A stretch of 64,000 nucleotides of DNA, taken from assembly GCF_013283195.1 (NCBI RefSeq), contig NZ_JABEKT010000002.1:496001-560000 (forward strand), given 5' to 3'. The DNA is from Ensifer adhaerens (GTDB taxonomy: Bacteria > Pseudomonadota > Alphaproteobacteria > Rhizobiales > Rhizobiaceae). Shown piece after piece: positions 16,513 through 47,415 of this stretch. The stretch's first letter is position 1; each line of letters starts with the position of its first letter. The position numbers and the translations under genes are program-made. The notes below the pieces were generated by a model. The model was given only the letters and a program-made list of their open reading frames with translations, was not told the origin of the DNA and did no database searches.

Positions 16513-16537
16513 CATTGTCAGGTCAAAAACGATCGCG

Positions 16538-31377: not shown

Positions 31378-31400
31378 GTTTTTAGGGCCGATGCGGACGA

Positions 31401-32363: not shown

Positions 32364-32443
32364 CTGAAACTCCTCTCGGCTTGGTCACTCGGCACGGTTC
32401 GTATGCGCCATCCGCGGCGGACGTTTCCCGTGCCTCTGGAGAT

Positions 32444-32489
32444 CAGATATATCTGTTTGTATTTTATTTGTCGACAAGAAAAATACAAA
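32444..32489. promoter_or_regulatory. Palindromic control region of hypD, candidate HypR site
   Basis: CAGATATATCTG (32444-32455) is a perfect palindrome. Directly next to it, 32456-32489 is a 34-base palindrome matching at 15 of 17 positions per arm, with outer arms TTTGTATTTT and AAAATACAAA and core TTGTCGACAA. The whole stretch sits between the hypR stop (32495) and hypD (start 32363), so it is the hypD promoter region. The outer arms carry the same TTTGTAT half-site as the other hyp promoters. Confidence 0.6.
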
Positions 32490-32494
32490 GATCG

Positions 32495-33199
32495 CTACAG
32501 AGCGATGTCGAGCGTGTTTTTCCGGGCGAAGAGTTTCTGCACCTGCTGGACGATCTGCTCGGCATGGGCTTTGCCAAGACGGTCGGCGGCCTCAAGATCG
32601 CGGGCTGTAATCGCGGCGATGATTTCGGCGTGCTCGTCGACGAAGCGCTGCGGGAATTGCTCCTCGTAGGACTGGTAGTAGAGGCGCAGGATGCGCCGTC
32701 CTTCGTCCAGAAGCCGGCGGAAAAGGCTGGTGAAATAAGGATTGCGGCCGGCTTCTGCGATCGCCGCGTGGAAGGCGGCATTGGTGGCGATCATCGCCAG
32801 CGCGTCGCCCGACTTGATGGCTTCGGCATAGTCTTCGTGGAAGCCGCGAATAACAGGCAGATCTTCCGGCCGGTGGTTCTGCGCGGCAAGCCGCGTCGTG
32901 ACGCGATACATCAGCACGAGTGCGTCGAAGAACGTGTGCATGTTGAGGAAGTCGATGCTCGAAACCATCGTCGATCGGTTCGGTAGCGTGTCGATCAGGC
33001 CTTCACCGGCAAGTCGCACCAGCGCTTCGCGGATCGGCGTGCGGGACATCTTGAAGCGTTCCGCAAGCTGGACCTCGTCGATCGGGCTGCCCGGCGGCAG
33101 CGCCAGATCGAGAATTTCGTCACGCAGAAGGTCATAGACCATCTTTACGCCGGAGCCACGCTTGCGCTCGAGTGTTGGGCTGGAATCGGTGTCGGTCAT
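32495..33199 (-). CDS. hypR: GntR-family regulator of hydroxyproline catabolism (HypR)
   Basis: A 234-residue FCD-type GntR regulator. The winged helix spans residues about 15-80 (VYDLLRDEILDLALPPGSPI ... RFKMSRTPIREALVRLAGEG); the FCD domain follows with NAAFHAAIAEAGRNPYF and DEHAEIIAAITARD, which carry ligand/metal His residues. The ATG at 33199 has AGGA upstream; the upstream extension lacks a ribosome site. It is expected to repress the hyp operons until hydroxyproline or a pathway intermediate is present. It precedes hypD on the same strand, with the palindromic control region between them. Confidence 0.88.
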   Translation of the reverse strand: MTDTDSSPTLERKRGSGVKMVYDLLRDEILDLALPPGSPIDEVQLAERFKMSRTPIREALVRLAGEGLIDTLPNRSTMVSSIDFLNMHTFFDALVLMYRVTTRLAAQNHRPEDLPVIRGFHEDYAEAIKSGDALAMIATNAAFHAAIAEAGRNPYFTSLFRRLLDEGRRILRLYYQSYEEQFPQRFVDEHAEIIAAITARDLEAADRLGKAHAEQIVQQVQKLFARKNTLDIAL

Positions 33200-33432
33200 G
33201 TCGAGAATCCTTATGTCGACATGATAAATACTTCTCCCTGCCCCTCGGATCAACTCGCGTGGTCACTTGACCGTCACTTGATCGAGGCGATGCGATCCTG
33301 ATGCAGACGCGCGCGACCGTTCCGGCGTCGCGAAGCCCGCAAAAGCCGATTGAAATCGAAACGAGATGCATTTGCCTTCAGCCCGGAGAAGATGGCCCTG
33401 GCACGGGCATCAACGATCAATGGTCATAAAGC

Positions 33433-34593
33433 TCAAAGGACCGGCATGTTCGTTCGCGAGAAGCTTGCAAACGCCGCCGCCGACAGTGGACCTGCGGTCA
33501 GCAAGGTAAAATCGAAGCATGCGCGAACGTCTGGGCCGAGGACGTACTGACGATGCACGCGCAGAAAGTTGCGTCTGATCTTACGGTAGCGGTCAGCTGA
33601 CAGCATGTGCTTGACCCTGATGTAAGCGATGGACGGTTGCTTTTCCTGCGGGTGTCCGGCCAGCGTGACGGTCCGCGTCTTGTAGAAATTGACCACATCC
33701 GTCAGGCACTGCACCTCGAACCAGAAGATCTCCTTGGCGCGCGCAATCGCTCCGATCCGGGCGCGAAGGGCTCGTGCCGGCCGCATTAGCGCGCATTGCA
33801 GGATCGCGCCGCCAAGCGTTGCGAACACCACCCGTTTGCCGGCCAGAATATCCGGGTGCCGCTCGATCAACAGGCCGATGACATGCGCGGCGACGCTTGA
33901 ACCCATGCTGTGCGAACTGATCAGATACTCGTCGGCGTTTTCGCTGAACGCTTCGCGGGCGCCGTCCACACAGCTTTCGAGCCAGCGGTTGAAATCGGGC
34001 CGATCCAGTCTCGCCAAGGCAACGGCCATTTCCCAGTCGGCAAACAGATGCAACGTGTGGAACTTCGCCGCGAACGGCAGCAGGACCTGCCTGACCAGAA
34101 GCGCTGCCAGCGGCACGCTCCACAGGAGGTTCCAGTAGGAGAGGTCTAACCAGTGCGGAAAGAATGCGACGACAAGGGCGGCCGCCGTCATCAGGCCGGC
34201 CAACAGGAAGGGGAACAGCGCGAACAGGCCGAAGCGCCAGGCGTGGCGAAAGTAACCCCAAAGCCCGCCGTTGAACGCCACATGCAGCGCGCTGGCAAAT
34301 CCCCCCGCCAGCCGACGCGCCAACGACCGCCGGCTCAAGGCGTCGACGAGCACATCGTGATCGAAAACATGGATGCGGCTCGACGCCTGCCAGTCCGACC
34401 CGGCGCAATCGACATCGAAATGCGCTGCCTGTTTCGTTCTGACCAATGGTCCGACATCGGATCTGAAGTCCCATGCCGTGGCGCTTTGTTGTGCTGAACG
34501 CTGATAACGCAGGCGGTGTGCTTCCGCATCGAAGGGCTCAAAGCCCGGAAAATGCAGGACGACCCTTTTCGTGACACGGGGCATGGGAGGCAT
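33433..34593 (-). CDS. Membrane protein with alpha/beta-hydrolase-like motif, function unknown
   Basis: A 386-residue protein of two parts. Residues about 1-110 are soluble and start with a strand-like VVLHFPGFEP that recalls the first strand of an alpha/beta hydrolase. Two membrane segments follow (FGLFALFPFLLAGLMTAA and NLLWSVPLAALLVRQVLL, about residues 120-190). The C-terminal half contains DEYLISSHSMGSSVAAHVIG, where S-H-S-M-G would be a nucleophile elbow with Ser in place of the first Gly. No confident His/Asp partner can be named. The start at 34593 (MPPMPRV) is the best ATG but no ribosome site is visible. Stands alone; no operon partner. Confidence 0.65.
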   Translation of the reverse strand: MPPMPRVTKRVVLHFPGFEPFDAEAHRLRYQRSAQQSATAWDFRSDVGPLVRTKQAAHFDVDCAGSDWQASSRIHVFDHDVLVDALSRRSLARRLAGGFASALHVAFNGGLWGYFRHAWRFGLFALFPFLLAGLMTAAALVVAFFPHWLDLSYWNLLWSVPLAALLVRQVLLPFAAKFHTLHLFADWEMAVALARLDRPDFNRWLESCVDGAREAFSENADEYLISSHSMGSSVAAHVIGLLIERHPDILAGKRVVFATLGGAILQCALMRPARALRARIGAIARAKEIFWFEVQCLTDVVNFYKTRTVTLAGHPQEKQPSIAYIRVKHMLSADRYRKIRRNFLRVHRQYVLGPDVRACFDFTLLTAGPLSAAAFASFSRTNMPVL

Positions 34594-35027
34594 CTGTGAA
34601 CTTGGTTTCGAGGGCTGTCGCCGAGCGACGCGGCGGCGGTCCCGTTTGGGTAACCGCTGGCGATCTGGCGACGTGAGGCAAGGGAGGGCAGTGGGTGGAA
34701 TCAGCTTGAAATTGACCGGCACCGTATCGACGCGAACTGCGGCGCAATCGTGATCGATCAAACGCCCTGAGCCTGGTTGATGAAATAAAACGAGGCGACG
34801 TATGGCCCCCTGCCTCGCGACGGGCGGCGGCCGCCGCTGACCACTTATCGACTGTGGCAAGCGCAAAGCAACTTGGCCTTGGTCGCGCAACGGTTTATCG
34901 AGGGACGCGGTTCGGCCGGCTGGAGATTTCGCAACGTTCGCCCCAAGATGGGTGGACGATCTGGGCAAGATCATTCCGGTCGGAGAACCCGGGCTGCCAT
35001 TGAACTCGTGCCGTGAAGAGTGAGCTT
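34594..35027. other. Gap of 434 bases, possible HTH gene remnant
   Basis: No intact gene is seen between the membrane hydrolase and yceH. On the plus strand, a stop-bounded frame from about 34840 to 35000 reads STVASAKQLGLGRATVYRGT and then FGRLEI, which resembles the recognition-helix end of a resolvase or transposase HTH, but it has no start and no catalytic domain. It could be a decayed mobile-element fragment or chance. Confidence 0.3.
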
Positions 35028-35678
35028 ATGAACACCAATCCAGACACCGATTTCCCTGAACTCAATGCGATCGAAGCGCGCGTTCTTGGCTGCCTGATCG
35101 AGAAGAAGGAAACCACGCCTGACGTCTATCCGCTGACGCTCAACTCCCTCCACTCCGCCGCCAACCAGAAGACGGCGCGCGATCCGGTGATGGCGCTGGA
35201 ACAGGCGGATGTGCATCGGGCGCTCAACTCGCTCTCCCAGAAGGGCCTGGTTCGACAGGCCTTCGCGTCGCGCGTCGAACGCTACGAGCACCTCGCCGCC
35301 AACCGCTTTTCGCTGACCTCGCCGCAAATCGTCGTGCTCGGGCTGCTTTTGCTGCGCGGTCCGCAGACCGCCTACGAGCTCTGGTCCCGCAGCGAACGCA
35401 TGGCGCGGTTCCAGTCGGTGGAGGATCTGAAAGACAATCTCGATCTGATGATCGGGCGCCGGCCGCCGTTGATTGTGCAGCTCAACCGTGGCGCCGGCCA
35501 GCGCGAGGACCGGTTTGCGCATCTCCTGTGCGGCGAGGTCGACCAGACGGCCGTCGCCACGCCAGGTGCAGCCGCGTTTGGCGGGAACGGTCTTTCCGAA
35601 CTGGAGCAGCGCCTGCGGACTCTGGAAGAGACTGTGGCGACACTCCAGGCGGAAGTTGCTGCCCTCAGGGGACATTGA
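35028..35678 (+). CDS. yceH: YceH family protein (DUF480)
   Basis: A 216-residue DUF480/YceH protein with two winged-helix-like domains (NAIEARVLGCLIEKKETTPD near residue 15; ALNSLSQKGLVRQ near 70; PQIVVLGLLLLRGPQTAYEL near 105) and a C-terminal coiled coil (LEQRLRTLEETVATLQAEVA). The family is widespread in proteobacteria with no settled role; DNA binding is inferred from the fold. The ATG at 35028 is preceded by GAG-TGAG; a GTG at 35013 is possible. Ends at a strong convergent hairpin. Confidence 0.92.
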   Translation: MNTNPDTDFPELNAIEARVLGCLIEKKETTPDVYPLTLNSLHSAANQKTARDPVMALEQADVHRALNSLSQKGLVRQAFASRVERYEHLAANRFSLTSPQIVVLGLLLLRGPQTAYELWSRSERMARFQSVEDLKDNLDLMIGRRPPLIVQLNRGAGQREDRFAHLLCGEVDQTAVATPGAAAFGGNGLSELEQRLRTLEETVATLQAEVAALRGH

Positions 35679-35722
35679 TTGCCCGCAACAAGCAATCCGT
35701 GGCTTCGCGGGGCTGGTGCTCC

Positions 35723-35759
35723 ATGAAAATTCCGGGCGCGAAACGCCCGGAATTTTCAT
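35723..35759. terminator. Perfect 16-bp convergent hairpin
   Basis: ATGAAAATTCCGGGCG (35723-35738), loop CGAAA, CGCCCGGAATTTTCAT (35744-35759). GC core with AT flanks on both sides gives a bidirectional terminator. Its right end touches the stop codon of the small Cys-rich gene (35759-35761). Confidence 0.85.
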
Positions 35760-35920
35760 CACTTTCCGGCGGGAGCGGCCGACTGTCTTGCGGCTTCCGC
35801 TTCGCCGATCGCGGCAGCGCATTCCTCGCAGCAGACTTCCACCGTCTTGCCCCCAAGCTTGACCTTGATGCTGTTCTGATCGAGTTCGCAGTCGCAGGCT
35901 GCACAGGTTTTCTGGCTCAT
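35759..35920 (-). CDS. Small Cys-rich metal-binding-like protein, 53 aa
   Basis: A 53-residue protein that begins MSQKTCAACDCELDQNSIKV, continues with GKTVEVCCEECAAAI and has an Ala/Glu-rich end. The CxxCxC ... CCxxC arrangement resembles TRASH/YHS-type zinc or heavy-metal finger proteins, so a metal-binding or metal-handing role is plausible but unproven. AGAGGAG precedes the ATG at 35920 at proper distance, and a perfect hairpin marks its 3' end. Convergent with yceH. Easily missed because it is so short. Confidence 0.8.
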   Translation of the reverse strand: MSQKTCAACDCELDQNSIKVKLGGKTVEVCCEECAAAIGEAEAARQSAAPAGK

Positions 35921-36357
35921 CGTCTTCGTCTCCTCTTGGTTGTGGTTTCAACCATCGTAAAAGACCATTTGGAGCGGTTGCGCCGCTGTCAGATTCTTTA
36001 GCGATCTGATGCGGCTATTGCCGATCTTTCCGTCGCTCGCCACGGGGAACGTGGCTGTGTGGAGACTGGATTCATGCCCGATGCTCCAGCACAGTTCTAT
36101 GAAAAATTACCCCATAAAAGTTGATTGATTTTCATCGGCAAGACAGCCACAGTAGCGAGGTAGAGCACAGCTTGTCCGCTTCACGACAAAAATGAGCTAA
36201 GATGCGGGCGAGGCAGTATTTCGGTGCTCCGAAACGATATCGATTAAGAATTTTCCATACGAAAACAACAAACAAAAAATAGGCCCCGGCATATTTAGCC
36301 AGGGCCATTTTTTTTGTCGGGTGCGTCGTTGAGGGGCGATGGTCCCTGACGGTGCGA
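35921..36357. other. Gap of 437 bases upstream of the Cys-rich gene and downstream of asbF
   Basis: No gene is seen. The right end holds the asb operon terminator (36282-36315). The middle (about 36095-36145) is AT-rich and could be a promoter region for the Cys-rich gene. A short segment near 35965-36015 (CTGTCAGATT then TTTAGCGATC) is nearly repeated at 44990-45010 upstream of the DUF1127 gene, which may be a shared promoter element. Confidence 0.45.
36282..36315. terminator. Rho-independent terminator of the asb operon
   Basis: GGCCCCGGC (36282-36290) pairs with GCCAGGGCC (36298-36306) with one bulge each side; eight T follow on the plus strand and an A-rich run (AACAAAAAAT) precedes it, which becomes a T-run for minus-strand transcripts. 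It lies 43 bases past the asbF stop. Confidence 0.8.
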
Positions 36358-37206
36358 TCACGAAAAGTTGATTGCGCGCCGAACGGGCTCCTGTCTCTCG
36401 ATCACGCGACGCAGCTGTCGGCGATCGCGCCTGAGGATGTCGAGGCAATCATTGCCGAACCACTCCAGCGATGCATCGATTTGTTCGCCGTCAGCGATCT
36501 CCAGGAGAAGATCGACATAGTCGACCGTGCCTTCGAACAACGGCGTCATGCCGTCGCGGCTGCCGGCAGCGGCATAGACGTTCGCCGGCTCGAAGACCTG
36601 TAGATCCGACCGATCACGAACGTTCTTCAGATGGTAGTGGCGAATGTGCTGCTTCATTTGGCGGTGAACGATAATGGGGTCGTCGCCGCCTTCCCAGACG
36701 TGCAGCGTATCGAAATTGATGGCAAAGGCTGGGTGATCGACCTCCTCGATCAGGCGCAATGTCGAGGCGGCGGTATCGGCCAGCGTCTTCGGATGCGTCT
36801 CGACCAGCAGCCGAATGCCATAGCCCGCGATGATCGCACATATCTCCTTCAGCCGGTCAACGATCAATTGTCGCTCTTCTTCGCAGACGGAGAGACTGCC
36901 GCGATTGCCGGCGAAGGTGCGGATCTTGCGGGTTCGCCAACGGCGGGCGAGCCTGCACAGCTCGACGGTCTTGTGCCTGAGCGTTTCCGGGTCGCCATCG
37001 AGTGGCAGATAGTCGCTGAGCATCGGCACCTTCAATCCGAACGTATCAAGCCAATCGGCATTGCGGTCGGGTTGTTGCGCCAGGTTGCGCGCATGCGCGC
37101 CCCAAAGCTCGATGCCCTGGAAATCGTTGGATTGCGCCCAGGCGGCGATTTCGCCAAGCGACATCAGATGATGACGGAACGTGATCGTGCACAGCGAGAT
37201 GTTCAT
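36358..37206 (-). CDS. asbF: 3-dehydroshikimate dehydratase, petrobactin-type (AsbF)
   Basis: A 282-residue xylose-isomerase-like TIM barrel. AsbF dehydrates 3-dehydroshikimate to 3,4-dihydroxybenzoate, the aryl unit of petrobactin. Likely metal ligands, by position in the barrel, are Glu136 (LLVETHPKTL), Asp166 (AINFDTLHVW), His192 (IRHYHLKNV) and Glu248 (ASLEWFGND); length matches the Bacillus protein (about 280). The ATG at 37206 overlaps the asbDE stop by 4 bases (ATGA). Last gene of the operon, followed by a terminator. A generic sugar isomerase would be the alternative without the operon context. Confidence 0.88.
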   Translation of the reverse strand: MNISLCTITFRHHLMSLGEIAAWAQSNDFQGIELWGAHARNLAQQPDRNADWLDTFGLKVPMLSDYLPLDGDPETLRHKTVELCRLARRWRTRKIRTFAGNRGSLSVCEEERQLIVDRLKEICAIIAGYGIRLLVETHPKTLADTAASTLRLIEEVDHPAFAINFDTLHVWEGGDDPIIVHRQMKQHIRHYHLKNVRDRSDLQVFEPANVYAAAGSRDGMTPLFEGTVDYVDLLLEIADGEQIDASLEWFGNDCLDILRRDRRQLRRVIERQEPVRRAINFS

Positions 37207-38513
37207 CGCGCAACCCTCTTGAGCATGGGAGCGTCAGCAGGAATGTTCTGGTCGCACCAGAGATCGAAGATTTCCGCTAGCTTGCCTTTCAGCTTCGCCT
37301 CGATCCGGTCGGCTTCAGCCAGCCGCTCGAAAACCGGGGCGACCAATGCGCGCTCACCGGTGTGGCTCAGCTTCATGCAGTCGTAATGCAGCGTCTTCAG
37401 CGCCTGAACGAGTGCCTCGATCTCGTCGCACCAACCTTCGAATTCGCGCGCCGGCAGCTTCAAGGCGCGCCAGAAGAAGGCAAAGCCGTGCTCGTAGGCA
37501 TATTTGCGGATGGTGATGACGGGCAGTTCGCGCACGGCCGCCGCCAGATCGGAAAGACCGATGCCGCCGCGTCCTTCCAGATGGGCGGTGACGATCTGAT
37601 GCATGCTGTCGACCAGCGGATTGTTGTCCCTGATGAAGCACGCCTCGAAGAAAGCCTTGAGGTCTTCAGCGGCCGGCGCGTGCGCCTCGGCATTGTCGAA
37701 CACATAGCCGCCGCCGACGGTCGGCTGCATGACCGCATGGATCACCTTGTCGCGCGTGATCTCGCCTTCCCAGCGATAATCGGGGTCGTGCACGAACCAG
37801 GTATCCGGATCGACGGTTTCCTGCAGCATGAGGTAATGCGGGAAGGGGTTCTGGTTGAACTTGTTCTCGCGCTCCGGCAGGTGGAACATGTCGAGCATGA
37901 CCATGACGGAGCCGGTGTCCGGGCGCCGACGGACGAGATCGAGCATAACCGCGAGGTTGTCGCTCTTGCTGATGTCGGGGTCGTACCACTCGCGGACGGT
38001 GACGCCGTAGAGCCGCTGAAACCACGCACGGAAGAATTCCTGGCTAATTTCGGGTGCGTGATAGAGCAGCTGGAAGCGGTCGCTGAGCGCGAATTTCGCG
38101 TCCCAGACACCGAAGTAGAACGGCCGGTGGTCGAGGCCCCGGCGCTTCAGCCCGTCGCAGACGCAGCTGACGAAGCAATGCACCTTGATGTCATAATAGG
38201 CTTCACCGTGCACCCCTTCGTCGGTCGTACCGCCGGTCATCGGAAACGACGGGATGACTGTCGCTGCCGCCTTCGGCTGGTAGAGGGCGACGAGGTCGGC
38301 GACCGTCTGCACGTCCTGGCGCGCGATCGCCTCTTCGGGAACGCTCAGCCCGTATTCCAGCTCCAGATTGAGAAAGATCTGCAGGATCAGCACTGAATCC
38401 AGATAGAGATCCTCGTTGAGACGCGCTTCCGGACCGAAGCCGTCGAGATGCGGATGCATCATGTGATCGCTGAGGACCGTATGGATTGCTTCCAGGGTTT
38501 CTTCGCTGGTCAT
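37203..38513 (-). CDS. asbDE: Fused aryl carrier protein and dihydroxybenzoyl transferase (AsbD-AsbE)
   Basis: A 436-residue protein that joins two petrobactin functions. Residues 1-85 are an acyl carrier domain: FGPEARLNEDLYLDSVLILQ holds the phosphopantetheine Ser40 (DS motif). Residues about 95-436 resemble AsbE, which moves 3,4-dihydroxybenzoate from the carrier to spermidine/citrate arms (VHCFVSCVCDGLKRRGLDHRP, MLDMFHLPERENKFNQNPFP, WFVHDPDYRWEG). In Bacillus these are two proteins of about 91 and 327 residues, whose sum fits this length. The ATG at 38513 has GGAG upstream and overlaps asbC by 4 bases; the stop overlaps asbF by 4. No frameshift is needed, so the fusion is real in this sequence. 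Confidence 0.85.
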   Translation of the reverse strand: MTSEETLEAIHTVLSDHMMHPHLDGFGPEARLNEDLYLDSVLILQIFLNLELEYGLSVPEEAIARQDVQTVADLVALYQPKAAATVIPSFPMTGGTTDEGVHGEAYYDIKVHCFVSCVCDGLKRRGLDHRPFYFGVWDAKFALSDRFQLLYHAPEISQEFFRAWFQRLYGVTVREWYDPDISKSDNLAVMLDLVRRRPDTGSVMVMLDMFHLPERENKFNQNPFPHYLMLQETVDPDTWFVHDPDYRWEGEITRDKVIHAVMQPTVGGGYVFDNAEAHAPAAEDLKAFFEACFIRDNNPLVDSMHQIVTAHLEGRGGIGLSDLAAAVRELPVITIRKYAYEHGFAFFWRALKLPAREFEGWCDEIEALVQALKTLHYDCMKLSHTGERALVAPVFERLAEADRIEAKLKGKLAEIFDLWCDQNIPADAPMLKRVAR

Positions 38514-39790
38514 GATGCTGCTCCGGCGATTGTTTTGCTGAACTCGCCGGCGGCGTGCCGGGCGGCAACCTCGCGGCGGCTGATCTTGCCATTGGCCTGG
38601 CGCGGGATGGCATCGACCTGGCGGATGTCCATCGGCAACTGATGGCTGGCGAGGTGCTTGTTGCACCATTCGCGGATCGCCTGCGGTGCCACGGTTTCTT
38701 CTGCACTGAACAGAAGCGCGACACGTTCGCCGGCGAAGCGGTCGCCGATGCGGAAGGCAACGGCATCGGAAACCTCGGGCATCGCCATCACCGCATCTTC
38801 AACGTCGCGGGGATAGACGTTGAGACCGGAGACATTGATCATGTCGTCCATGCGCGACACGAAGACCAGCATGCCGTCACCGCGGCGATAGCCGAGGTCG
38901 CGGGTGTGGATGGCGATGCCGTCGTCCTTGGTCACCACGATTTCGCCGGTATCCTCGGCGCTGCTGCCAGTCTGTGGCAGAAGATGCGGCAGCACGAACC
39001 CCATGTCGCCGGCGGCGGTCACGTCAGGATTGATGGCGATGCATCCGGCTTCCGAGCAGCCATATTGCTGGAACATGTGCCGGCTCTTCGCCCGGATCTG
39101 GGCAAACCATGGGTCCGGCAGAAGCGTGCCGGATGTCATCGTCGCGTGGATCTGTTCGCCCTCCGGCAGGAGCCGGGCCAGCGTGTGCAGGATCGCCGGC
39201 GAGGAATAGAGCAGTGGTCGCTCTGTTTCGCGCAGGATCTTCAGGAGGTATTTCGGATTGGCGGTGTTGACGACGACGGGCGTCTGGCCGCGCTTCAGCG
39301 CCACAAGGATGCCGCAGATCAAGCCATAGGAATGGGTAGTCGGGCAGGCGACGATCGGGGTCATGTCCACCGGCTCGCGGAAGGCGGTGATATAGCTTTC
39401 GATCTCGGCGTCGATGTCCTGCCAGGTTCGCGCCACACATTTCGGCGCGCCGGTCGTGCCGGAACTCATCTGCAGCAGCGTACCGACGGGCGAGACGTTC
39501 GCCGGCCGTTCCAGCACTTCCGCCGTCAGGCTGTTGTAGAACAGCCGGTCGCAACCGGCACCGATCGCCAGCTTGCGTGCTGCGGCATAGGGCGTGCCCG
39601 GATGGATCGGCAAGACGCTGGCGCCGGCCTTGCGGATGGCGAAGAACAGCGCCAGCCAGTCGGCGGGCTCTGTAAAGCAGACCGCATAGCGACCGTCGTC
39701 GCGGTCTTTCAGGCCGATCTGTCCGGCAAGCCGTGCGGATGTCTCGTCGAAATAGGCGCGGTCATAGAGCCTGTCGTCGATGCGGATCAT
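38510..39790 (-). CDS. asbC: 3,4-dihydroxybenzoate-AMP ligase (AsbC)
   Basis: A 426-residue adenylate-forming enzyme that activates 3,4-dihydroxybenzoate and loads it on the carrier domain. Motifs: P-loop LLQMSSGTTGAPK (about residue 105), PTTHSYGL, YGCSEAG, VSRMDDMINVSGLNVYP and catalytic Lys in RQANGKISRRE. It is shorter than typical NRPS-type ligases (about 540), as AsbC is. AAGGAG precedes the ATG at 39790, which overlaps the asbB stop by 4 bases (ATGA). Confidence 0.88.
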   Translation of the reverse strand: MIRIDDRLYDRAYFDETSARLAGQIGLKDRDDGRYAVCFTEPADWLALFFAIRKAGASVLPIHPGTPYAAARKLAIGAGCDRLFYNSLTAEVLERPANVSPVGTLLQMSSGTTGAPKCVARTWQDIDAEIESYITAFREPVDMTPIVACPTTHSYGLICGILVALKRGQTPVVVNTANPKYLLKILRETERPLLYSSPAILHTLARLLPEGEQIHATMTSGTLLPDPWFAQIRAKSRHMFQQYGCSEAGCIAINPDVTAAGDMGFVLPHLLPQTGSSAEDTGEIVVTKDDGIAIHTRDLGYRRGDGMLVFVSRMDDMINVSGLNVYPRDVEDAVMAMPEVSDAVAFRIGDRFAGERVALLFSAEETVAPQAIREWCNKHLASHQLPMDIRQVDAIPRQANGKISRREVAARHAAGEFSKTIAGAAS

Positions 39791-41523
39791 GGCTTTCTCC
39801 TTCGTTGAAGTCTGTCCGCGGCGAGCGCATTGGGCACCACGTGGTGGTACTCCGGCTTGCGTGCGAGAAGCTTCCTCGTCATCAGGGATTCGGTGATGAT
39901 TTCGGGCCTGTCGTGGCCGAGCTGCGCCTGCCTGGCAGCCATGCCGTACCTGTGCGGGTAGGATGACAGCAGGTTTTCGACCCGCTGCCAGAACAGCGGT
40001 TCACCAAGGGCGTAGCAATGGGCGAGAAGGTGGCTGACTTCGCTCAAGTTGTAGACGAACAGGGTGTCCATCACCAGTTCGCGCAGGGAATCCAGGTTGT
40101 CCGTCCAGTAGAACTGGTCGGGCTCGGCGTCGCGGTAGGACGGATGCAGGGATGAAAAATCCGGTGCCTTTTCCGGTTCGCGCAAGAAGTCCGGCGAAAA
40201 TTCGATGCTCTCGTGAAAATCCCGCAGGATCAGCCGCACCGGCCAGCCGTCGCGGTGGACGAGCAGCATGTTCTGACCATGGGCCTCGACGGCGATGCCG
40301 TGATGGACGAGCAGATGCCAGACCGGCAGGACGGCGACCTCGAGCAGCCGGTTGAGCCATGGCATCAGCCCGAAGCGCCTGATCCAGTCGTCGGCAAAGG
40401 GCCGTCCGTCGGTCTCCACCATCATCAGCGCGGTGAAGGGAATGACGGCTTCTCCGGCTTTGAGCGTCGCCTCCGCGCTCTCGCGCCAGATTGCGCCCAC
40501 TTGGCCCGCCAGCGGTTCATCGGCATCGGCGATGATCCCGGCATATTCCTGCAGGATGGTCAGCGGATAGTCGTCCCGAAACACTGGGTCTGAAGCGACG
40601 ATCTCGCCAATCCAGTGTGAGATGACCGGCGCCGTGCACACCGAGTGCGGTTCGAGGATGCGCCGCGAGGATGTGTTGACGATGTTGAGCGGCAGCTTGA
40701 TGCTGGCCGCCAGCGGTCGATCCCGGTTGAGCAAGGAGCGTACCGATTGCGTGGCCGTATAGCGGTCGCCGGCAGGGCCAATGCAATGGGCCTCGCCGGC
40801 TGCGATCCAGCCGGAGGCGAGCGTCTCGCCCAGATTGCGCCATTGCCAGGGATGCAGCGGCACCAGCCCGTAATCCTCAGTGGAGGCGCCGAGCTGTTCT
40901 CGCATGCCCTGGAAATGCGCCCAGGTTTCCGCGCCAAGTTCGGTGCGCCAGAACGCTTCCTCGCTGTCGGGTAGGGCCTGGCGCAGATGGCGGCGGGCGA
41001 TAAGCAGCCAGACGAGCTGGAACGGCTGGCTGGCCTCCGGGCCGAAGAGTGCGTGGTCGGCGAATGAGAAGCCAGTGCGCGCCTTGTAGCAGGGATGATA
41101 GGGATGCCCCTCGTCGATGGCGCCTTCGAGCTCGGCGAAATCCATCTCCCGGCGGGGACCGGTGACTAGATGGCGGTCGTTCCACTCGGAAAAGGCAATC
41201 GTCTGCTTCATCTCGTTCAAGAGCTTGGCCCGGGTGATGCCGGTGCCGGGCAGGGAGGAAACCACAAGCGAGAGTGACGCCTCGTTCCAGTTTCCGTCGC
41301 TTTCCCGCATTTGCACTGATCCCGGCAACGGCCAAATTCGCCCGAATGCACCGAGGATGGCGTCGCACCGAAAGTCGTGATCGACGAGCGTCCAGCGAAA
41401 ATGCGTGGTGCCGTCGCCGTCACTTCGATGTGCGTCGACGATACCTTCGAACAAGAGGGCGGCGATCAACTGGCGAAGCACCCGGTCATCGGGGCGTCCC
41501 TTGATATCAAGAGGCAATGGCAT
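39787..41523 (-). CDS. asbB: NIS siderophore synthetase, AsbB-type (IucA/IucC family)
   Basis: A 578-residue IucA/IucC family NRPS-independent synthetase. ATP/citrate motifs: DEGHPYHPCYKARTGFS (about residue 137), VPLHPWQWRN, ATQSVRSLLNRDRP, LPLNIVNTSSRR and EAHGQNMLLVHRDG. In petrobactin assembly AsbB adds the second spermidine-type amine to the citrate core. AGGA precedes the ATG at 41523; it overlaps the asbA end by 17 bases. Second of two tandem NIS synthetases, as in Bacillus asb. On sequence alone it could be any NIS synthetase. Confidence 0.9.
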   Translation of the reverse strand: MPLPLDIKGRPDDRVLRQLIAALLFEGIVDAHRSDGDGTTHFRWTLVDHDFRCDAILGAFGRIWPLPGSVQMRESDGNWNEASLSLVVSSLPGTGITRAKLLNEMKQTIAFSEWNDRHLVTGPRREMDFAELEGAIDEGHPYHPCYKARTGFSFADHALFGPEASQPFQLVWLLIARRHLRQALPDSEEAFWRTELGAETWAHFQGMREQLGASTEDYGLVPLHPWQWRNLGETLASGWIAAGEAHCIGPAGDRYTATQSVRSLLNRDRPLAASIKLPLNIVNTSSRRILEPHSVCTAPVISHWIGEIVASDPVFRDDYPLTILQEYAGIIADADEPLAGQVGAIWRESAEATLKAGEAVIPFTALMMVETDGRPFADDWIRRFGLMPWLNRLLEVAVLPVWHLLVHHGIAVEAHGQNMLLVHRDGWPVRLILRDFHESIEFSPDFLREPEKAPDFSSLHPSYRDAEPDQFYWTDNLDSLRELVMDTLFVYNLSEVSHLLAHCYALGEPLFWQRVENLLSSYPHRYGMAARQAQLGHDRPEIITESLMTRKLLARKPEYHHVVPNALAADRLQRRRKP

Positions 41524-43291
41524 GGGTTGTCCTTGCTGCCGTCAGTGCCGCCGGCGCCCGCAATGGGTTGGCAACGGGGCGATAGAGGATCGGCGCGTGG
41601 TCGGATTGCAGTTCGTCGACATTGAACAGCCGGGTGGTCAGGTTGGCCTTGGATGCGATCGTCGGCAGGTCCAGCACGTGCCTTGCGAAGTCGCGTCCAG
41701 CGCCAGTCATCGAAAGCGCGCACTGCTCCAGGTGGTTGCGCAGCATCCGCAGCAGCGCACCTTCGTCGCAAAGCCCGTCATGGCCCATGCGGCTGATGAC
41801 GGAAAAGACCTGATTGACAATGAGATAATAGGCGAAGCGGTCGCGGATTTCGCTTTCGGGGAAGTAGAGTGACGGGATCGTCTCGGTTTCCGGAACGTGG
41901 GCCGATAGCAGGCTGCGATAGCGCTCGGAGAGATAAAAACCCTGATTGTCGCGATAGTAGCTGACGGCGGGGTAGCCGGCGCCGACGTCGAGCAGGCTGT
42001 TTTGCTGGTGCGCCTCGAGCGCGATGCCATAGTCGTCGTAGAGGCGGATCAGCGGTTCGACGGCGCAATCGAGATAGCGCTGGAACCAGGCGGTGCTGAC
42101 GTCGGCAACGGCTTCTCCGTCGCGGATCGAAAGCATGCGCAGGAGCGTCTCAAGCCTCGATTGCGTTTCCGGAAGCGGGTCGGCCGTCAGCGCCGCCACG
42201 GTTATGACGCCCTGCCCCCTGCCGTGGGTGAAGGGGTTTTCACGCAGGATGACTTCAAAGCCACTCTCGCTTTCACCCGGCAGATCGAGCGTGACATAGG
42301 CTGGATCCTGGATGATGCGGAAATTGGCCGAGCGCCCGGCAAAACCGATGCGGTCGATCAGCCGGGCCATGGCGACGCCGGCTTCCAGCTCCTGCATGCG
42401 GTTGAGGCGGACGGAATTGGTGATGCGAACCGGCAGCGAGAATTTCAGCATCCAGTCTTCGTTCGCGCCATAGACGGTACGGACGGAGGACGTGGCGCTG
42501 AAGGGGGAACCCGCCGGGCCGAGGTGACGCAGGATGCCGGCGTGCTGCATCGCCTGAATGCGCGGGTCGAGGAGCAGGGCTTCCGCCTGGAGCGGGTGCA
42601 TCGGCAACAGGCATTCGTCACCGGCAAGGCCGAGATCTGCCGCATCGAGGCTGGACAGGGAGCGCACGATGTCCGGCGCCTCTATCGGGCGCGAGGACGC
42701 GTGGCGGACATGGGCCGTCTTCGCCGCGAAATACTGCAGCCTGAACTGGCCACGCAGTTCCGGCGCGTAGCTCTCCTGCTGCCAGTAGCTCATGCCCTGT
42801 CGGCTCTTCGGCGTCGGGTGCAACCAGTGCCCGAAGACGAGCGACTGCTCGGCCTCGAGAAAATCATCGACGCCTTCTTGAGTGGGCATCGTCCTGTCGA
42901 GGTAGAGTGCCGTCTGCTGGTAGCTTTCGAGCACGCGGATCAGGAGCTCGAGTTCGAAGCCGCGCAGCGCATCCGTCAGGCCGCCATCGTCCTGGCGATA
43001 GGCGGCCTGGACCAACATATGAAGGGCGGACATCAGCTCGATCGGCCGCCACGACGGTTCGGAGACATGGCGCCCCCAGGCCCTGCCGAAGTGAAGCGGG
43101 CCGCAAAGAGACGATGATGTGACCTCGACACGCAGCATCATTTGCTGGCGGGGAAGCGACCATTCGATGCTGTCGCAGGCGCCGCCAGCGGTCCGGTGCA
43201 TCACCGGCACGCCGGGATTGACCTCGCGGAGGTAGCAGTTGGCGAAGCTTTGAAATGTCGCAGTTTCTGCGATTTGCCTAGACGATTTCAT
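41507..43291 (-). CDS. asbA: NIS siderophore synthetase, AsbA-type (IucA/IucC family)
   Basis: A 594-residue IucA/IucC synthetase that would condense citrate with spermidine in the first assembly step. The N-terminus, MKSSRQIAETATFQSFANCY, strongly recalls AsbA. Family motifs: VFGHWLHPTPKSRQG, LLPMHPLQAEALL, ATSSVRTVYGA, LKFSLPVRITNSVR and EAHQQNSLLDV. GAGGA lies 9 bases before the ATG at 43291; upstream sequence lacks family similarity. First gene of the asb operon, 542 bases after an AraC gene. Whether spermidine or homospermidine (common in rhizobia) is the amine cannot be read here. Confidence 0.9.
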   Translation of the reverse strand: MKSSRQIAETATFQSFANCYLREVNPGVPVMHRTAGGACDSIEWSLPRQQMMLRVEVTSSSLCGPLHFGRAWGRHVSEPSWRPIELMSALHMLVQAAYRQDDGGLTDALRGFELELLIRVLESYQQTALYLDRTMPTQEGVDDFLEAEQSLVFGHWLHPTPKSRQGMSYWQQESYAPELRGQFRLQYFAAKTAHVRHASSRPIEAPDIVRSLSSLDAADLGLAGDECLLPMHPLQAEALLLDPRIQAMQHAGILRHLGPAGSPFSATSSVRTVYGANEDWMLKFSLPVRITNSVRLNRMQELEAGVAMARLIDRIGFAGRSANFRIIQDPAYVTLDLPGESESGFEVILRENPFTHGRGQGVITVAALTADPLPETQSRLETLLRMLSIRDGEAVADVSTAWFQRYLDCAVEPLIRLYDDYGIALEAHQQNSLLDVGAGYPAVSYYRDNQGFYLSERYRSLLSAHVPETETIPSLYFPESEIRDRFAYYLIVNQVFSVISRMGHDGLCDEGALLRMLRNHLEQCALSMTGAGRDFARHVLDLPTIASKANLTTRLFNVDELQSDHAPILYRPVANPLRAPAALTAARTTHAIAS

Positions 43292-43833
43292 TTTTTCAAT
43301 CCTCGGCACGCGACATGCAAAGTCGCGCAATCGCGTCGCGTGGGAGGCGCAACGCATTGAATTTTCGTGGTGATTTGGCTTAGGTCGGCGCGGTGTGCGT
43401 CACGCACGGTCTGTCAGCCGCCCGTGGAGGCGGATGGGCTTGGCGCAGGATGCGGCCGGCTGCTAGCCAAGCGCCACATGAGCGCGATCCGGACGGGCGC
43501 CATTGGCGACGTCCGCTGGAGTGGTTGCTGGCCACTGCTTGCAAGGTCGTGAACGCAAACGCGTCTGTCGCCAGCGCTCCACGCAGAAATGGACCAGTGC
43601 GGCCGCGTTCCGCTTCCAAAGGCAGGCGTCCGTTAGGGCATTCCGGTGCGCTCATCTTCCACCCGTCTCTGCTTTCGGCGCGCTGCTTCAGCATGCGCTT
43701 TCAAACTAAGACGACCGGCTCCGGATTTTTTTTCACCGATCCCGGATTTTTTTATGATTATTTTTGTCCAGTTAAACTTCGCCCGCGACAGCCACTTGGC
43801 CGTTGCCGCCGCCGCGTGCAACCGCGCTGAAGG
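43292..43833. promoter_or_regulatory. Long control region upstream of the asb operon
   Basis: A 542-base gap between the AraC gene and asbA. I find no convincing gene; a plus-strand frame of 145 codons here has no ribosome site and odd composition. Features seen: GTGCG-TCA-CGCAC (43395-43407), CGAC/GTCG arms near the asbA start, and an AT-rich block at about 43722-43770 with CCGGATTTTTTT twice, which may be the AraC gene's 3' end or a promoter. No clear TGA-N9-TCA iron box. Confidence 0.4.
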
Positions 43834-44664
43834 TTAGCGAAGATGGAGGGCGCGTTGGAAATCGGCGGGCGTGCGCCCGTAGGCCTGCTTGAAGGAGGCG
43901 CTGAAATGGCTGTGACTTGAAAAGCCGATATCGAGGCCGAGGGCCGTCAAGTCACGGCAGGAGCCGAGCAGATCCAGTGCCCGGGCAAGCCGCAGCCGCA
44001 GCTGGTAGCGATAGAGCGGCATGGCTTCGACCTGCTGGAACATCTGAGTGAGATAGACCGGCGACACGCCGACCTCAGTTGCCACCTCGGTCAGGGTCCA
44101 GCGGCGGGCGAGATCGCTCGACAGAACCAGCTTCGCCCGATCGACGAGTTTTTCCCGGCCGTAGGTGGTTGCAGCGCTGTGCGACGTCCGCTCGCCGAGC
44201 GAGCGCCGGATCAATGTAAGCGTCATGGTCTCGGCTTCGAGCGTTTCTGCGACCCCGCGATGAAGGCTGTAGCGCAACAAGGCGACCAGCGCCTGCGCCC
44301 GTGGATCGATGCGCCGGCGCGGTCTTTTGAACAAGGCAAGCGCGCCCGAGCGCAATTGCTCCTTCGGCGCGAGCTCGCTGAGAACGGCTTCGTCCACCTG
44401 CACATCGAGACAGGCATCGCCACCTTCGACCGGGTGGCTGACGCGGTAGTCCTCGCCGCGGTTGAAGAAGATCACCTGATTGGATTCAGCCACCGTGTCG
44501 GCCTTGCCGACGTGCCGCATGAAGACGCCGCGATAGGGATAGACGAGGCTTGTTCGATGCGCACATTCCTCGCCGCTTTTCCCACGGCACGATCCATCGC
44601 ACACCACGTCCCGAAGCGAGGCGATCGACGTGTCGAGAAGCGTCTGGCACGAAAACTGGGACAT
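43834..44664 (-). CDS. AraC-family regulator, likely controller of the asb operon
   Basis: A 276-residue AraC regulator. The C-terminal double HTH is intact (WTLTEVATEVGVSPVYLTQM and LGLDIGFSSHSHFSASFKQA, ending RTPADFQRAL). The N-terminal sensor half has YPYRGVFMRHVGKADTVAES and VIFFNRGEDYRVSHPVEGGD (cupin-like). It carries an early Cys cluster (VVCDGSCRGKSGEECAHRTS; Cys22, 26, 34) that could sense metal or redox state. AGGA precedes the ATG at 44664. Same strand as asbA and the nearest regulator, so control of asb is inferred, not shown. Confidence 0.85.
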   Translation of the reverse strand: MSQFSCQTLLDTSIASLRDVVCDGSCRGKSGEECAHRTSLVYPYRGVFMRHVGKADTVAESNQVIFFNRGEDYRVSHPVEGGDACLDVQVDEAVLSELAPKEQLRSGALALFKRPRRRIDPRAQALVALLRYSLHRGVAETLEAETMTLTLIRRSLGERTSHSAATTYGREKLVDRAKLVLSSDLARRWTLTEVATEVGVSPVYLTQMFQQVEAMPLYRYQLRLRLARALDLLGSCRDLTALGLDIGFSSHSHFSASFKQAYGRTPADFQRALHLR

Positions 44665-44671
44665 TGCAGTC

Positions 44672-44926
44672 CTACTCGTCGCGTTGGTGGAAATCGTTAT
44701 AGGCGTCCCCGCGCGACAGGCCAATATCCTTCAGCTGATGATCGGAAAGCGCAAGCAGGTCCAGACGTCCCCGCCTGGTTTCCATCCAGCGCGAAAAGCG
44801 CCAAAACAGCCGCCGGGGCAAGCCTCGCGCTCCGAGTTCGGCCGGAGCCGCAATCCTTTGCCGCGGGGCGATCTGTTGGGTGGAGACATGGATCAGACTG
44901 TCATGGAATGAAGCTGTGTCGGACAT
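44672..44926 (-). CDS. DUF1127 small protein
   Basis: An 84-residue protein whose C-terminal 45 residues are a DUF1127 domain (FWRFSRWMETRRGRLDLLAL then SDHQLKDIGLSRGDAYNDF). DUF1127 proteins in rhizobia and Agrobacterium are implicated in RNA turnover and phosphate or carbon control; this one has a longer N-terminal stretch. GGGAG lies 9 bases before the ATG at 44926. It lies 7 bases upstream of the AraC gene on the same strand, so they may be cotranscribed. Confidence 0.82.
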   Translation of the reverse strand: MSDTASFHDSLIHVSTQQIAPRQRIAAPAELGARGLPRRLFWRFSRWMETRRGRLDLLALSDHQLKDIGLSRGDAYNDFHQRDE

Positions 44927-45134
44927 CGGGTCATCTCCCTTCATGTCGTTTCCGATGATGGCAGAATGACGCGTTGCGGCCGCGGCGGCTGTCAGATTGT
45001 TTAGCAATCGATCAGTGTTTGGCGGGGCATCTGGCGATGGGCATCGCCGAATACCAAAGTCGCCTTAAAAGTACGACTTTAGTCGCTTTGCAGGCCCCTG
45101 CCGCGGGACTATTCTTTGTCCGGGAGGATCAATC

Positions 45135-45380
45135 ATGACCAAGATAGCCGTACCGCTGGTCAGTCACGGACACCCGGATCGCGAGCCGGATTGCGAATGC
45201 GCGGTTGAAGATGCCTTCCTGGATTTGGTCGAGCGTGCGGAGGCCGCGGGCTGGACGTCGGACGAAGTGGCGGATTGTCTCGTCAACCTGTCGCACAAGC
45301 ATCGCACGACACTTAACGAGGACATCCACATGCTCGAGGAGATCACGTCCTCACTGCTGCTCTCAAGAAAGCTCCATTAG
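45135..45380 (+). CDS. Small hypothetical protein, 81 aa
   Basis: An 81-residue soluble, acidic protein: DCECAVEDAFLDLVERAEAA, GWTSDEVADCLVNLSHKHRT and DIHMLEEITSSLLLSRKL. Helical throughout, with His-Glu pairs. GGGAGGA precedes the ATG at 45135. Family not recognised, though small proteins of this look are frequent in rhizobia. Stands alone. Confidence 0.75.
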   Translation: MTKIAVPLVSHGHPDREPDCECAVEDAFLDLVERAEAAGWTSDEVADCLVNLSHKHRTTLNEDIHMLEEITSSLLLSRKLH

Positions 45381-45546
45381 AGAATCCCGCCTGCAGGTGG
45401 GTTCACTGAAGACGGATAGGATGCTCCCCAATCAAGGTGCGAGAGCGTTCTTCGAGCGTTGTTCTGAACGCGCGGCGCTCAGCGGTCCGCCGTCGTCTTG
45501 AAGCGGCTGACTTCTCCGTTCGGAACCTAGGTCAAGGATCGATGGC

Positions 45547-45990
45547 TTAGGCCGCTACGAATTTTCCATCGTATCGCACGCGAAAATTCCGGCGCTGTGC
45601 GTCCTCCTGGAAGCAGAGAAACACCAGTTCGAGATCGTTCGTGCTGCTACGCCGCCCAAGCAGGCTGAGCGTGATCACAACCACGCCGCCATAGGCACGC
45701 GTCAGATCGATTGCGGCCCTGCGAATTTCATTGGTGCCGGCATCGTCTCTATCTTCCCGCCGCTCGTACACCTGAAAGAAACGTGCCGTCTCCCAGGCCG
45801 ATCGCAATGCCTCGGTTACCTGGTCCTTGAACTCGTCCGCCGACCTGCCCTTGCTCCACGAAATGGTCTGCTCGGTGTGATCGCTAAAGATGTCGAGATA
45901 ACCGTCATAGTCGTCCGGATCGGAGAAACACCGCTCGATCATCCCGAACGCCACGTCATCGGAAATCGCTGCCTTGAAGAATATCGTCAT
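45547..45990 (-). CDS. Hypothetical protein, 147 aa
   Basis: A 147-residue soluble protein with an acidic N-terminus (IERCFSDPDDYDGYLDIFSD), a central helix (FKDQVTEALRSAWETARFFQ) and a beta-rich end (GGVVVITLSLLG, LVFLCFQEDAQRRNFRVRYD). No family recognised. AGGG lies upstream of the ATG at 45990. Faces the 81-aa gene convergently. Confidence 0.72.
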   Translation of the reverse strand: MTIFFKAAISDDVAFGMIERCFSDPDDYDGYLDIFSDHTEQTISWSKGRSADEFKDQVTEALRSAWETARFFQVYERREDRDDAGTNEIRRAAIDLTRAYGGVVVITLSLLGRRSSTNDLELVFLCFQEDAQRRNFRVRYDGKFVAA

Positions 45991-46503
45991 CGAATCGCCA
46001 ACCCTGCCTTGAGCGCCTATGTTGTCAAAGCGTCGGCGACGTATCTAGTCCCCAGAGTGCCCGATCAACGAAGTACGCGCGTTTATCCTTTCACAGCAGG
46101 GGCTTGACCCCGGTTGATAGGGCAGTTGTTGGTAACTGTCGGGCGGGGAATTCGGCATTTTTCGGTAGGCAAGAGTCCTCGGCCTACAGGCAACCGCTTC
46201 GATGACCGCGCCCGGGGTCTCATCTATTCCTAATTATATGAGTGTTGCCTTATATTCGCGGTCCATGCTATCCTTGATTTCATTCCAAATGGGTGCAACC
46301 CGCATTCTCATTTCGCATTCCGACGCACAATCTCCGAGGCTGCATCGGAAGCGCTGTTCGTTTCGATACTCATATTTGCAGCATAAAAATCTGTTTCGTC
46401 CGGCAACGCATCGGTGATGCAAGCGACCGGAAGATCGCACCGTTTCGAACGCCGAAGCGGAAACAGGCGGGGGGCGGAAACAGGCGGGAGGAGGTGTGCT
46501 TCT
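45991..46503. other. Gap of 513 bases
   Basis: No supported gene. Two divergent short frames (46202-46417 plus, 46234-46440 minus) overlap each other and lack ribosome sites. The stretch 46225-46300 is AT-rich for this genome (CTAATTATATGAG, CTTATATTCGCGG) and is the likely promoter region of the ClpP-like gene. Confidence 0.4.
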
Positions 46504-47415
46504 TTGTTCGGCAGGGCATTTCCAAGCGATCTATCTCAGCGTTCGTTGGCCATCGGCTGCCTGTCGGTTGGGCTCATGCTCTCAGCCACATCCGGTCGCG
46601 CATCGCCGCCGGAGGGCGCGGATATGCAGTTCTTCGTGGTGCGCAGCGGCCAGCCGGGGTGCGAGCCGACCTGCCCGGAATGGGTATCGGCAGAAGGCAC
46701 TATCGTTGACGAAAGCCCGGCTCGCTTCAAGAAGCTGCTCAAATCGCTCGGCAATCGTCGCCTGCCGATCGTGGTGACGTCGCCCGGCGGAGACGTCGAT
46801 GCTGCGCTGGCGATCGGGCGCATGATCAGGGCGCGAAAGCTTGACGTGGCGGTCGGCAAGACCCGCTTCGTCGGCTGCCAGCCGGAGCAGCGGGATTGCA
46901 GGGCCAACGACGGCAAGGGCGCGCGTCACATCGGCATCGCCTATTCCGGGGAAGCCTATTGCAATTCGGCCTGTCCGCTGATGTTTGCCGGTGGAACGCG
47001 GCGCGTGGTCGGCGAGTGGGCGTTCCTGGGCGTGCACCAGATCACCACGACCTACGTTCAGATGGAAACGCAGTATCGGATGAAATACCGCGTCGTGAAC
47101 GGCAAGAAGAAAGTCACCAGCAAGAAAGTCGTCGGCCGAAGGAATGTCGGCGGTTACAAGACCTATGAGATGAGCAAGGCGACCGAGCGCAAGCTGGAAA
47201 CGTACCTCACGGACATGGGCGTCGACCATGCCGTCGTCAATCTGATGAAGGTCACGCCCGCGACCGATATCCGCAAGATCGAGCCTGTCGCGATGCTGGA
47301 GATGAAGCTGACCACCGAACTGGGGGGCGTCGAATTCCTGACATCGATCGAAGTCTGCGCGACGGTGCCGGCGGCTGCCAACTGCCGGGTGTTTACCTCG
47401 GTGGATCTGGAGTAG
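46504..47415 (+). CDS. Periplasmic ClpP-like serine protease-fold protein (COG3904 type)
   Basis: A 303-residue protein with the ClpP/crotonase fold used by small periplasmic proteases. Motifs are VVTSPGGDVDAALAIGRMIR, AYCNSACPLMFAGGTRRVV (Ser in NSAC is the expected nucleophile) and FLGVHQI (His). The TTG at 46504 was chosen because a perfect AGGAGG lies 9 bases upstream and it yields a signal peptide (LAIGCLSVGLMLSATSGRAS). A GTG/ATG start at 46414-46417 is longer but without a site. The 3' end overlaps the convergent MFS gene by 23 bases. Substrate unknown. Confidence 0.75.
   Translation: MFGRAFPSDLSQRSLAIGCLSVGLMLSATSGRASPPEGADMQFFVVRSGQPGCEPTCPEWVSAEGTIVDESPARFKKLLKSLGNRRLPIVVTSPGGDVDAALAIGRMIRARKLDVAVGKTRFVGCQPEQRDCRANDGKGARHIGIAYSGEAYCNSACPLMFAGGTRRVVGEWAFLGVHQITTTYVQMETQYRMKYRVVNGKKKVTSKKVVGRRNVGGYKTYEMSKATERKLETYLTDMGVDHAVVNLMKVTPATDIRKIEPVAMLEMKLTTELGGVEFLTSIEVCATVPAAANCRVFTSVDLE

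What the first reader, a model, noticed from the sequence alone, without database searches (positions are those of the whole stretch)
36358..43291. Petrobactin-type siderophore operon in a rhizobial genome
Seen: five overlapping genes encode two IucA/IucC synthetases, a short aryl-AMP ligase, a carrier/transferase and a 3-dehydroshikimate dehydratase, in the order asbA-B-C-DE-F. Known: this is the complete gene set of petrobactin, a citrate-spermidine-3,4-dihydroxybenzoate siderophore studied in Bacillus anthracis and Marinobacter. Inference: this bacterium makes petrobactin or a variant, perhaps with homospermidine, the usual rhizobial polyamine. I do not know of a described rhizobial producer.
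Basis: partly seen in the sequence, partly recalled or inferred. Interest (0 to 1): 0.85.

Follow-up and report, generated by a model that had tools for sequence, protein, structure and literature searches.

The report
Rhizobial petrobactin operon, receptor genes displaced
This soil bacterium carries an intact set of genes for making a petrobactin-type iron-scavenging molecule, a system already reported in close relatives; what is new is that the matching receptor gene now sits about 32 kilobases away while its old switch still stands in front of the synthesis genes.

Summary
Window 36358-43291 (minus strand) holds five overlapping, intact genes asbA-asbB-asbC-asbDE-asbF. A petrobactin-type product is a sound inference, but "no described rhizobial producer" is wrong: a 2022 mBio paper (PMC8822346) showed that asbA is needed for siderophore production in Sinorhizobium fredii and names the cluster in Ensifer adhaerens; rhodopetrobactins are known from the same order. 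DUF6005 (asbE) matches in 16 of 16 genomes held for the genus and 29 of 297 drawn from the family. The new part is the rearrangement. In 7 of 16 genus genomes, this one included, fecI-fecR-fprA are not next to asb; here they lie 31-35 kb upstream. The stretch before asbA still carries the fprA promoter (FecI-type box, RirA-like site) and the first codons of fprA, so asb probably stays under FecI in trans. The displaced receptor looks like a different lineage of fprA (moderate evidence). The polyamine in the product is open: routes to homospermidine and probably spermidine are both encoded.

The parts
41507..43291 (-). asbA homologue, type A NIS synthetase (594 aa; in-frame upstream ATG at 43357)
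   Evidence: Pfam IucA_IucC + FhuF; best solved match IucA, 170 bits; groups with 12 other AsbA rows, support 94/100; 78% identical to S. fredii USDA 205
39787..41523 (-). asbB homologue, NIS synthetase (578 aa)
   Evidence: AsbB 3to3, 348 bits; 77% identical to S. fredii USDA 205; AsbB group in the NIS tree weakly supported, 48/0
38510..39790 (-). asbC homologue, short aryl-AMP ligase (426 aa)
   Evidence: NF006167 561 bits against cut-off 513; substrate 3,4-dihydroxybenzoate inferred
37203..38513 (-). asbDE fusion: carrier domain (Ser in DLYLDSVLIL, residue 40) plus AsbE transferase domain DUF6005 (436 aa)
   Evidence: NF005798 AsbD 71.8 bits, below cut-off 100; DUF6005 494 bits; Ser motif; one continuous match over both domains in the Rhizobiales loci except L020, where only part matched; AsbE is a separate frame in Marinobacter, Priestia and Alkalihalophilus
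36358..37206 (-). asbF homologue, 3-dehydroshikimate dehydratase (282 aa)
   Evidence: AsbF 3dx5, 261 bits over residues 1-265
43708..43735 (-). FecI-type promoter box TGAAAAAAAATCCGGAGCCGGTCGTCTT, inherited from fprA
   Evidence: Only match in 64 kb at up to 2 mismatches; expected 0.03; the 30-base form differs by 1 base from the S. fredii USDA 205 fprA promoter
43755..43769 (-). RirA-like site GGA-N9-TCA, one base off the published TGA-N9-TCA
   Evidence: aligns with the same place in fprA promoters of S. fredii USDA 205 and others
43380..43655 (-). relic of the 5' end of the original fprA (MSAPEC...), kept as an open frame (91 codons plus stop)
   Evidence: Alignment of 7 detached loci with 7 attached fprA starts; frame open in 7 of 7; no Pfam match
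43834..44724 (-). AraC-family regulator upstream of asb; link to asb not shown
   Evidence: Pfam HTH_18; present in 6 of 7 detached loci, absent in L007/L094

Best explanation
A working petrobactin-type siderophore operon, general in this genus, whose receptor module has been displaced. AsbF makes 3,4-dihydroxybenzoate from 3-dehydroshikimate. AsbC adenylates it and loads it on the phosphopantetheine arm of the AsbD domain. The AsbE domain moves it to one end of a triamine, and AsbA and AsbB join two such arms to citrate (steps inferred from homology and recalled knowledge of the pathway). Transcription starts at the old fprA promoter, which now reads into asb after loss of most of fprA and of the DUF2218 gene from the locus. 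FecI, encoded 31 kb away with fecR and fprA, should activate asbA, fecR and fprA together, and RirA should repress under iron-replete conditions. Uptake is probably by the displaced FprA with a FatBDCE-like ABC importer on another contig. Shown: genes, intactness, promoter relic, displaced genes. Inferred: activity, regulation in trans, uptake route, product.
For: Gene identities. NIS tree. Purifying selection on asbA, dN/dS 0.13 across 7 loci. DUF6005 in 16 of 16 genus genomes. fprA at G000:C12:571967-574213 with fecI and fecR before it. FecI-type box with 0 mismatches in front of asbA, distal fecR and distal fprA, and an exact match in 56 of 120 fetched loci (many overlap or hold no fec or fpr gene). 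In S. fredii FecI binds the fecR and fprA promoters, and RirA represses fecI and the fprA-asb-fat operon (PMC8822346 sections 9 and 10). RirA encoded, 289 bits against cut-off 193. Two ACPS-family phosphopantetheinyl transferase matches; the one tested is HetI-like but below that cut-off (158 of 370). HSS 796 bits; carboxyspermidine-dehydrogenase-like and NspC genes side by side. fatBDCE-like genes on C16, 42-47% identical.
Against: No expression or chemistry for this strain. The AsbD model is below its cut-off and asbA's best solved match is IucA; the AsbB group is weak in the NIS tree. Distal FprA's best NCBIfam models are haem/haemoglobin receptor subfamilies, all below cut-off, so its role rests on the S. 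fredii work. The carboxynorspermidine synthase model is below cut-off (456 of 800). No exporter identified. The RirA-like site before asbA is imperfect. The leader between promoter and asbA is about 420 bases, and an AraC gene of unknown role lies upstream.
Confidence: 0.85

Rival explanations
1. The operon makes a homospermidine analogue of petrobactin, akin to non-acetylated rhodopetrobactin, rather than petrobactin itself.
For: Homospermidine synthase is encoded (796 bits to 4plp). Rhodopetrobactin-type compounds of the same order carry homospermidine (PMC11317620 passages). The main text of the S. fredii paper mentions neither spermidine nor mass spec, LC-MS or HPLC (supplements not read), so the rhizobial product is named there by homology and CAS assay.
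Against: A carboxyspermidine-dehydrogenase-like gene and an NspC-type decarboxylase are also encoded. No acetyltransferase in the operon.
Confidence: 0.35
2. The operon is a decaying remnant without a matched receptor and no longer gives iron uptake.
For: fprA and DUF2218 are lost from the locus. In a relative, E. canadensis, an IS110-type transposase gene lies between asbB and asbC; in another, G015, the fprA frame is split.
Against: All five genes intact; asbA dN/dS 0.13; intact fecI-fecR-fprA elsewhere in the genome.
Confidence: 0.07
3. The fecI-fecR-fprA block simply moved by an inversion or transposition, with no change of lineage.
For: asbE and fprA are on opposite strands and 30-40 kb apart in all 5 detached genomes where both lie on one contig.
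Against: The relic start (MSAPEC...) resembles fprA of S. fredii USDA 205 (MSSPEC...), not the distal fprA (MCISQG...). Distal FecI and FecR are only 55-57% identical to the attached forms of L031 and L009, while attached FecR forms compared in that call are 64-74% identical to each other. Holding FprA to the AsbB grouping costs 34.5 log units, AU p 0.016.
Confidence: 0.25

Closest known systems
fecIR-fprA-c14010-asbABCDEF-fatBDCE of Sinorhizobium fredii CCBAU45436 (PMC8822346)
   Same: Same asb genes and order; fecIR-type receptor module; FecI-type promoter; RirA encoded. 77-82% identity, measured against S. fredii USDA 205
   Different: In the window fprA and DUF2218 are gone from the locus, fecIR-fprA sit 31-35 kb away and are more divergent, no fat genes follow asbF, and an AraC gene precedes
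asb cluster of Ensifer adhaerens Casida A (named in PMC8822346)
   Same: Same operon; read here as L030 and L080
   Different: Casida A keeps fecI-fecR-fprA-DUF2218 attached
Rhodopetrobactin cluster of Rhodopseudomonas palustris and mll cluster of Methylorubrum extorquens (PMC11317620 passages)
   Same: AsbA-F homologues, asbD-asbE fusion, TonB receptor with sigma and anti-sigma factor, DUF2218
   Different: Those carry a GNAT acetyltransferase gene and, in mll, an asbB-asbC fusion; neither is in this operon. Their sequences were not compared here
asb operons of Marinobacter denitrificans, Priestia taiwanensis and Alkalihalophilus (L026, L022, L025)
   Same: All five enzyme functions; 39-52% identity
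   Different: AsbE is a separate frame there

Membership tests
petrobactin asb operon | two NIS synthetases of the AsbA and AsbB clades | tested here: met
   AsbA group 94/100; AsbB group one side of a branch in the best tree but weakly supported (48/0; 52% of bootstrap trees); AsbB 348 bits to 3to3
petrobactin asb operon | AsbC, AsbD, AsbE, AsbF homologues in the same operon | tested here: met
   the AsbD model is below its curated cut-off (71.8 of 100)
petrobactin asb operon | product is citrate with two spermidine-3,4-dihydroxybenzoate arms | not testable with these tools
   Genome encodes homospermidine synthase and a probable spermidine route
petrobactin asb operon | iron-regulated expression | tested here: inconclusive
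   FecI-type box matched; RirA-like site one base off; no expression data
S. fredii-type fprA-asb-fat polycistron | fprA and DUF2218 directly upstream of asbA | tested here: not met
S. fredii-type fprA-asb-fat polycistron | fatBDCE directly downstream of asbF | tested here: not met
   tblastn of FatB, D, C and E in the window gives only FatD- and FatE-type matches of 25-36% identity, none between asbF and 32 kb
rhodopetrobactin/methylolanthanin cluster | GNAT acetyltransferase in the cluster | tested here: not met
   None among the five operon genes or the upstream AraC and MFS genes; other flanking genes were only partly scanned and the rest of the genome was not searched
rhodopetrobactin/methylolanthanin cluster | asbB-asbC fusion (methylolanthanin) | tested here: not met
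   asbB and asbC are separate frames

The most novel reading that the evidence does not exclude
In this Ensifer subclade the receptor was swapped: an incoming fecI-fecR-fprA of another lineage replaced the original, which was cut out so that its promoter now drives asb under a sigma factor encoded elsewhere. The swap accompanied a shift to a homospermidine-based siderophore that the old receptor, and neighbours carrying it, cannot use. The leftover fprA start persists as a translated leader peptide.
Probability: 0.12. Interest if true: 0.6.

Novelty: new member of a known kind. Interest (0 to 1): 0.35.

Why it matters
Genes for a siderophore and its receptor usually sit together; this clade separates them and leaves a promoter relic that records the event. 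Close relatives with attached and detached receptors let one test whether piracy or a change of product drives receptor exchange. It also shows that the two S. fredii papers seen here name the rhizobial product petrobactin without, in what I read of them, showing its structure.

Tried and rejected
Rejected: unrelated NIS clade; chance reading; decayed operon. The TonB receptor at window 14158-16389 with a FecCD importer at 17473-20306 was considered as the petrobactin receptor and set aside: its best specific models are an unnamed siderophore receptor, ferrichrome FhuA and ferrioxamine receptors, all below their cut-offs, while only the general siderophore-receptor model TIGR01783 is passed. 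This is not a disproof. AraC as dedicated regulator: not supported, absent in 1 of 7 detached loci. NodA: no match in the genome, but the control rang nowhere, so absence is not shown. The relic frame as a gene: open in 7 of 7, but dN/dS 0.65, so left open. A possible DUF2218 C-terminal relic just upstream of asbA was seen by eye only and is not relied on.

Papers: PMC8822346: abstract, sections 9, 10, 11 and 18, and passages. PMC12815270, PMC13251462 and PMC11317620: passages only. Lee 2007 (PMC1855748) is not held, so the enzyme steps are recalled. Other papers were seen as search listings only. The statement that I found no product chemistry for Rhizobiaceae rests on (30 of 38 listed; 10 of 20 listed), 87 and the passages of the first two papers; the library holds open-licence papers only, and supplements were not read.
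Full report
Observation. The five frames described are present at the given coordinates and are intact. Domain, family and solved-structure searches identify them as asbA, asbB, asbC, a fused asbDE and asbF. The weakest identifications are the carrier domain, which scores 71.8 against a cut-off of 100 for AsbD, and asbA, whose best solved relative is IucA. A tree of 30 NIS synthetases puts window AsbA with AsbA of Marinobacter, Photobacterium, Priestia, Alkalihalophilus, Phaeobacter, Tateyamaria and Azospirillum, apart from a rhizobactin and a haloarchaeal enzyme (94/100). On the AsbB side all AsbB rows are one side of a branch in the best tree, but with weak support (48/0), because a rhizobactin/haloarchaeal pair joins near them.

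Prior art. PMC8822346 (abstract, sections 9, 10, 11 and 18, and passages) reports that S. [quoted passage not shown] adhaerens Casida A has the cluster. PMC12815270 (passages) uses the same strain; of the two references it cites for the product, one is the Marinobacter structure paper and I did not look up the other. The main text of the S. fredii paper has no occurrence of 'mass spec', 'LC-MS', 'HPLC' or 'spermidine'. The polyamine of the product in Rhizobiaceae is therefore, in what I read, named by homology. Rhodopetrobactin and methylolanthanin of the same order contain acetylated homospermidine, with a GNAT gene in their clusters (PMC11317620 passages).

Distribution. DUF6005 (AsbE) matches in 16 of 16 genomes held for the window's genus and in 29 of 297 drawn from the family, three of these 29 at clearly lower scores (310-317 bits against 464-502). 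In PLSDB asbDE matches 71 of 72,556 plasmid records, including Ensifer, Neorhizobium, Pararhizobium, Azospirillum and Phaeobacter. The nearest named relatives found are Ensifer oleiphilus (asbB 89%) and E. canadensis plasmid pT173e (85% DNA identity over 95% of window 30001-50000). The window's contig is 1.46 Mb.

The displaced receptor. S. fredii FprA finds one strong match in the window's genome, 73% identical, at C12:571967-574213; the next match scores 96 bits. fecI and fecR lie just before it (Pfam). This block is 31-35 kb upstream of asbA and on the other strand. In the genus, fprA matches in 16 of 16 genomes; it is attached to asb in 9 and detached in 7. In the 5 detached genomes where both lie on one contig, asbE and fprA are 30-40 kb apart on opposite strands; in the other 2 they are on different contigs. 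In one of these two the fprA match is split over two frames. The 7 detached loci form one group in the AsbB, FprA and FecR trees (100/100 each).

The relic. In all 7 detached loci the stretch before asbA aligns with the promoter and first codons of attached fprA genes. The 30-base FecI-type box differs from that of S. fredii USDA 205 fprA at 1 base. A 28-base form, TGARAAAAAA-N11-TCGTCTT, has one match in the window at up to 2 mismatches (0.03 expected), and two in the 19 kb around the distal block, before fecR and fprA (0.00 expected). The motif was drawn from these three places, so their fit is not independent; exact matches in 56 of 120 fetched loci (many overlap) add weight. One detached locus, AFS045263, departs by one base. 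A RirA-like site, GGA-N9-TCA, lies upstream where S. fredii USDA 205 has AGA-N9-TCA; distal fprA has a full TGA-N9-TCA.

Swap or move. The relic begins MSAPEC, like S. fredii MSSPEC; distal fprA begins MCISQG. FprA of the detached clade falls outside a group (100/99) of S. fredii, attached Ensifer and several Rhizobium and Pararhizobium rows, Rhizobium sp. 32-5/1 among them. The asb genes instead place the detached clade inside a group that leaves out Rhizobium sp. 32-5/1 and P. antarcticum (AsbB 84/87; concatenate 99.6/100, there with Xaviernesmea and R. terrae inside too). Forcing the AsbB grouping on FprA gives AU p 0.016. This is moderate: it hinges on few rows, and the group was named after the AsbB tree was seen. 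I favour replacement by another lineage but do not regard it as settled.

The leader frame. The relic is an open frame of 79-99 codons in 7 of 7 genomes, with net length changes in whole codons; the other two frames hold 1-4 stops each. Its dN/dS is 0.65, against 0.13 for asbA. It may be a translated leader, or an open frame kept by chance in GC-rich DNA.

Supply and uptake. Encoded are homospermidine synthase (796 bits), a carboxyspermidine-dehydrogenase-like protein (351 bits to a saccharopine dehydrogenase entry, 336 to carboxyspermidine dehydrogenase; NCBIfam carboxynorspermidine synthase 456, below its cut-off of 800) and an NspC decarboxylase just above its cut-off (411 of 409). RirA is encoded (289 of 193). 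FatBDCE-like genes, 42-47% identical, lie at C16:432.7-436.6 kb. Distal FprA itself scores best with haem-receptor subfamilies, all below cut-off. No exporter was identified.

Verdict. A real and very probably working petrobactin-type operon of a known kind, in a genus where it is general. The novelty is limited to the detached receptor, the promoter relic and the open question of the polyamine.

Noticed in passing
L029:16779-17936 (Ensifer canadensis pT173e): An IS110-family transposase gene lies between asbB and asbC, so the operon may be interrupted in that strain.
   Followed up: partly
G015:C35:27963-30217 (L079, L100): The fprA match is split over two frames in this genome; could be real or a sequencing error.
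   Followed up: no
L015 and L018 (Xaviernesmea oryzae, Rhizobium terrae): asbA-B-C-DE is followed by fecI-fecR-fprA-DUF2218-fatB and no asbF was found in the 17.7 kb fetched; the source of 3,4-dihydroxybenzoate there is unknown.
   Followed up: partly
L020 (Rhizobium sp. 32-5/1): asbDE matches only in part (residues 64-250 of the query); the gene may be broken there.
   Followed up: no
window 14158-20306: FoxA/FhuA-like TonB receptor, ABC ATPase and a fused FecCD permease: a second siderophore uptake system, perhaps for hydroxamates.
   Followed up: partly
window 43380-43655: Open frame starting like fprA, kept open in 7 of 7 detached loci with net whole-codon length changes.
   Followed up: partly
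window 47393-48940: DHA2-type MFS efflux gene about 4 kb upstream of asbA, also found near asb in most detached loci; possible exporter, untested.
   Followed up: no
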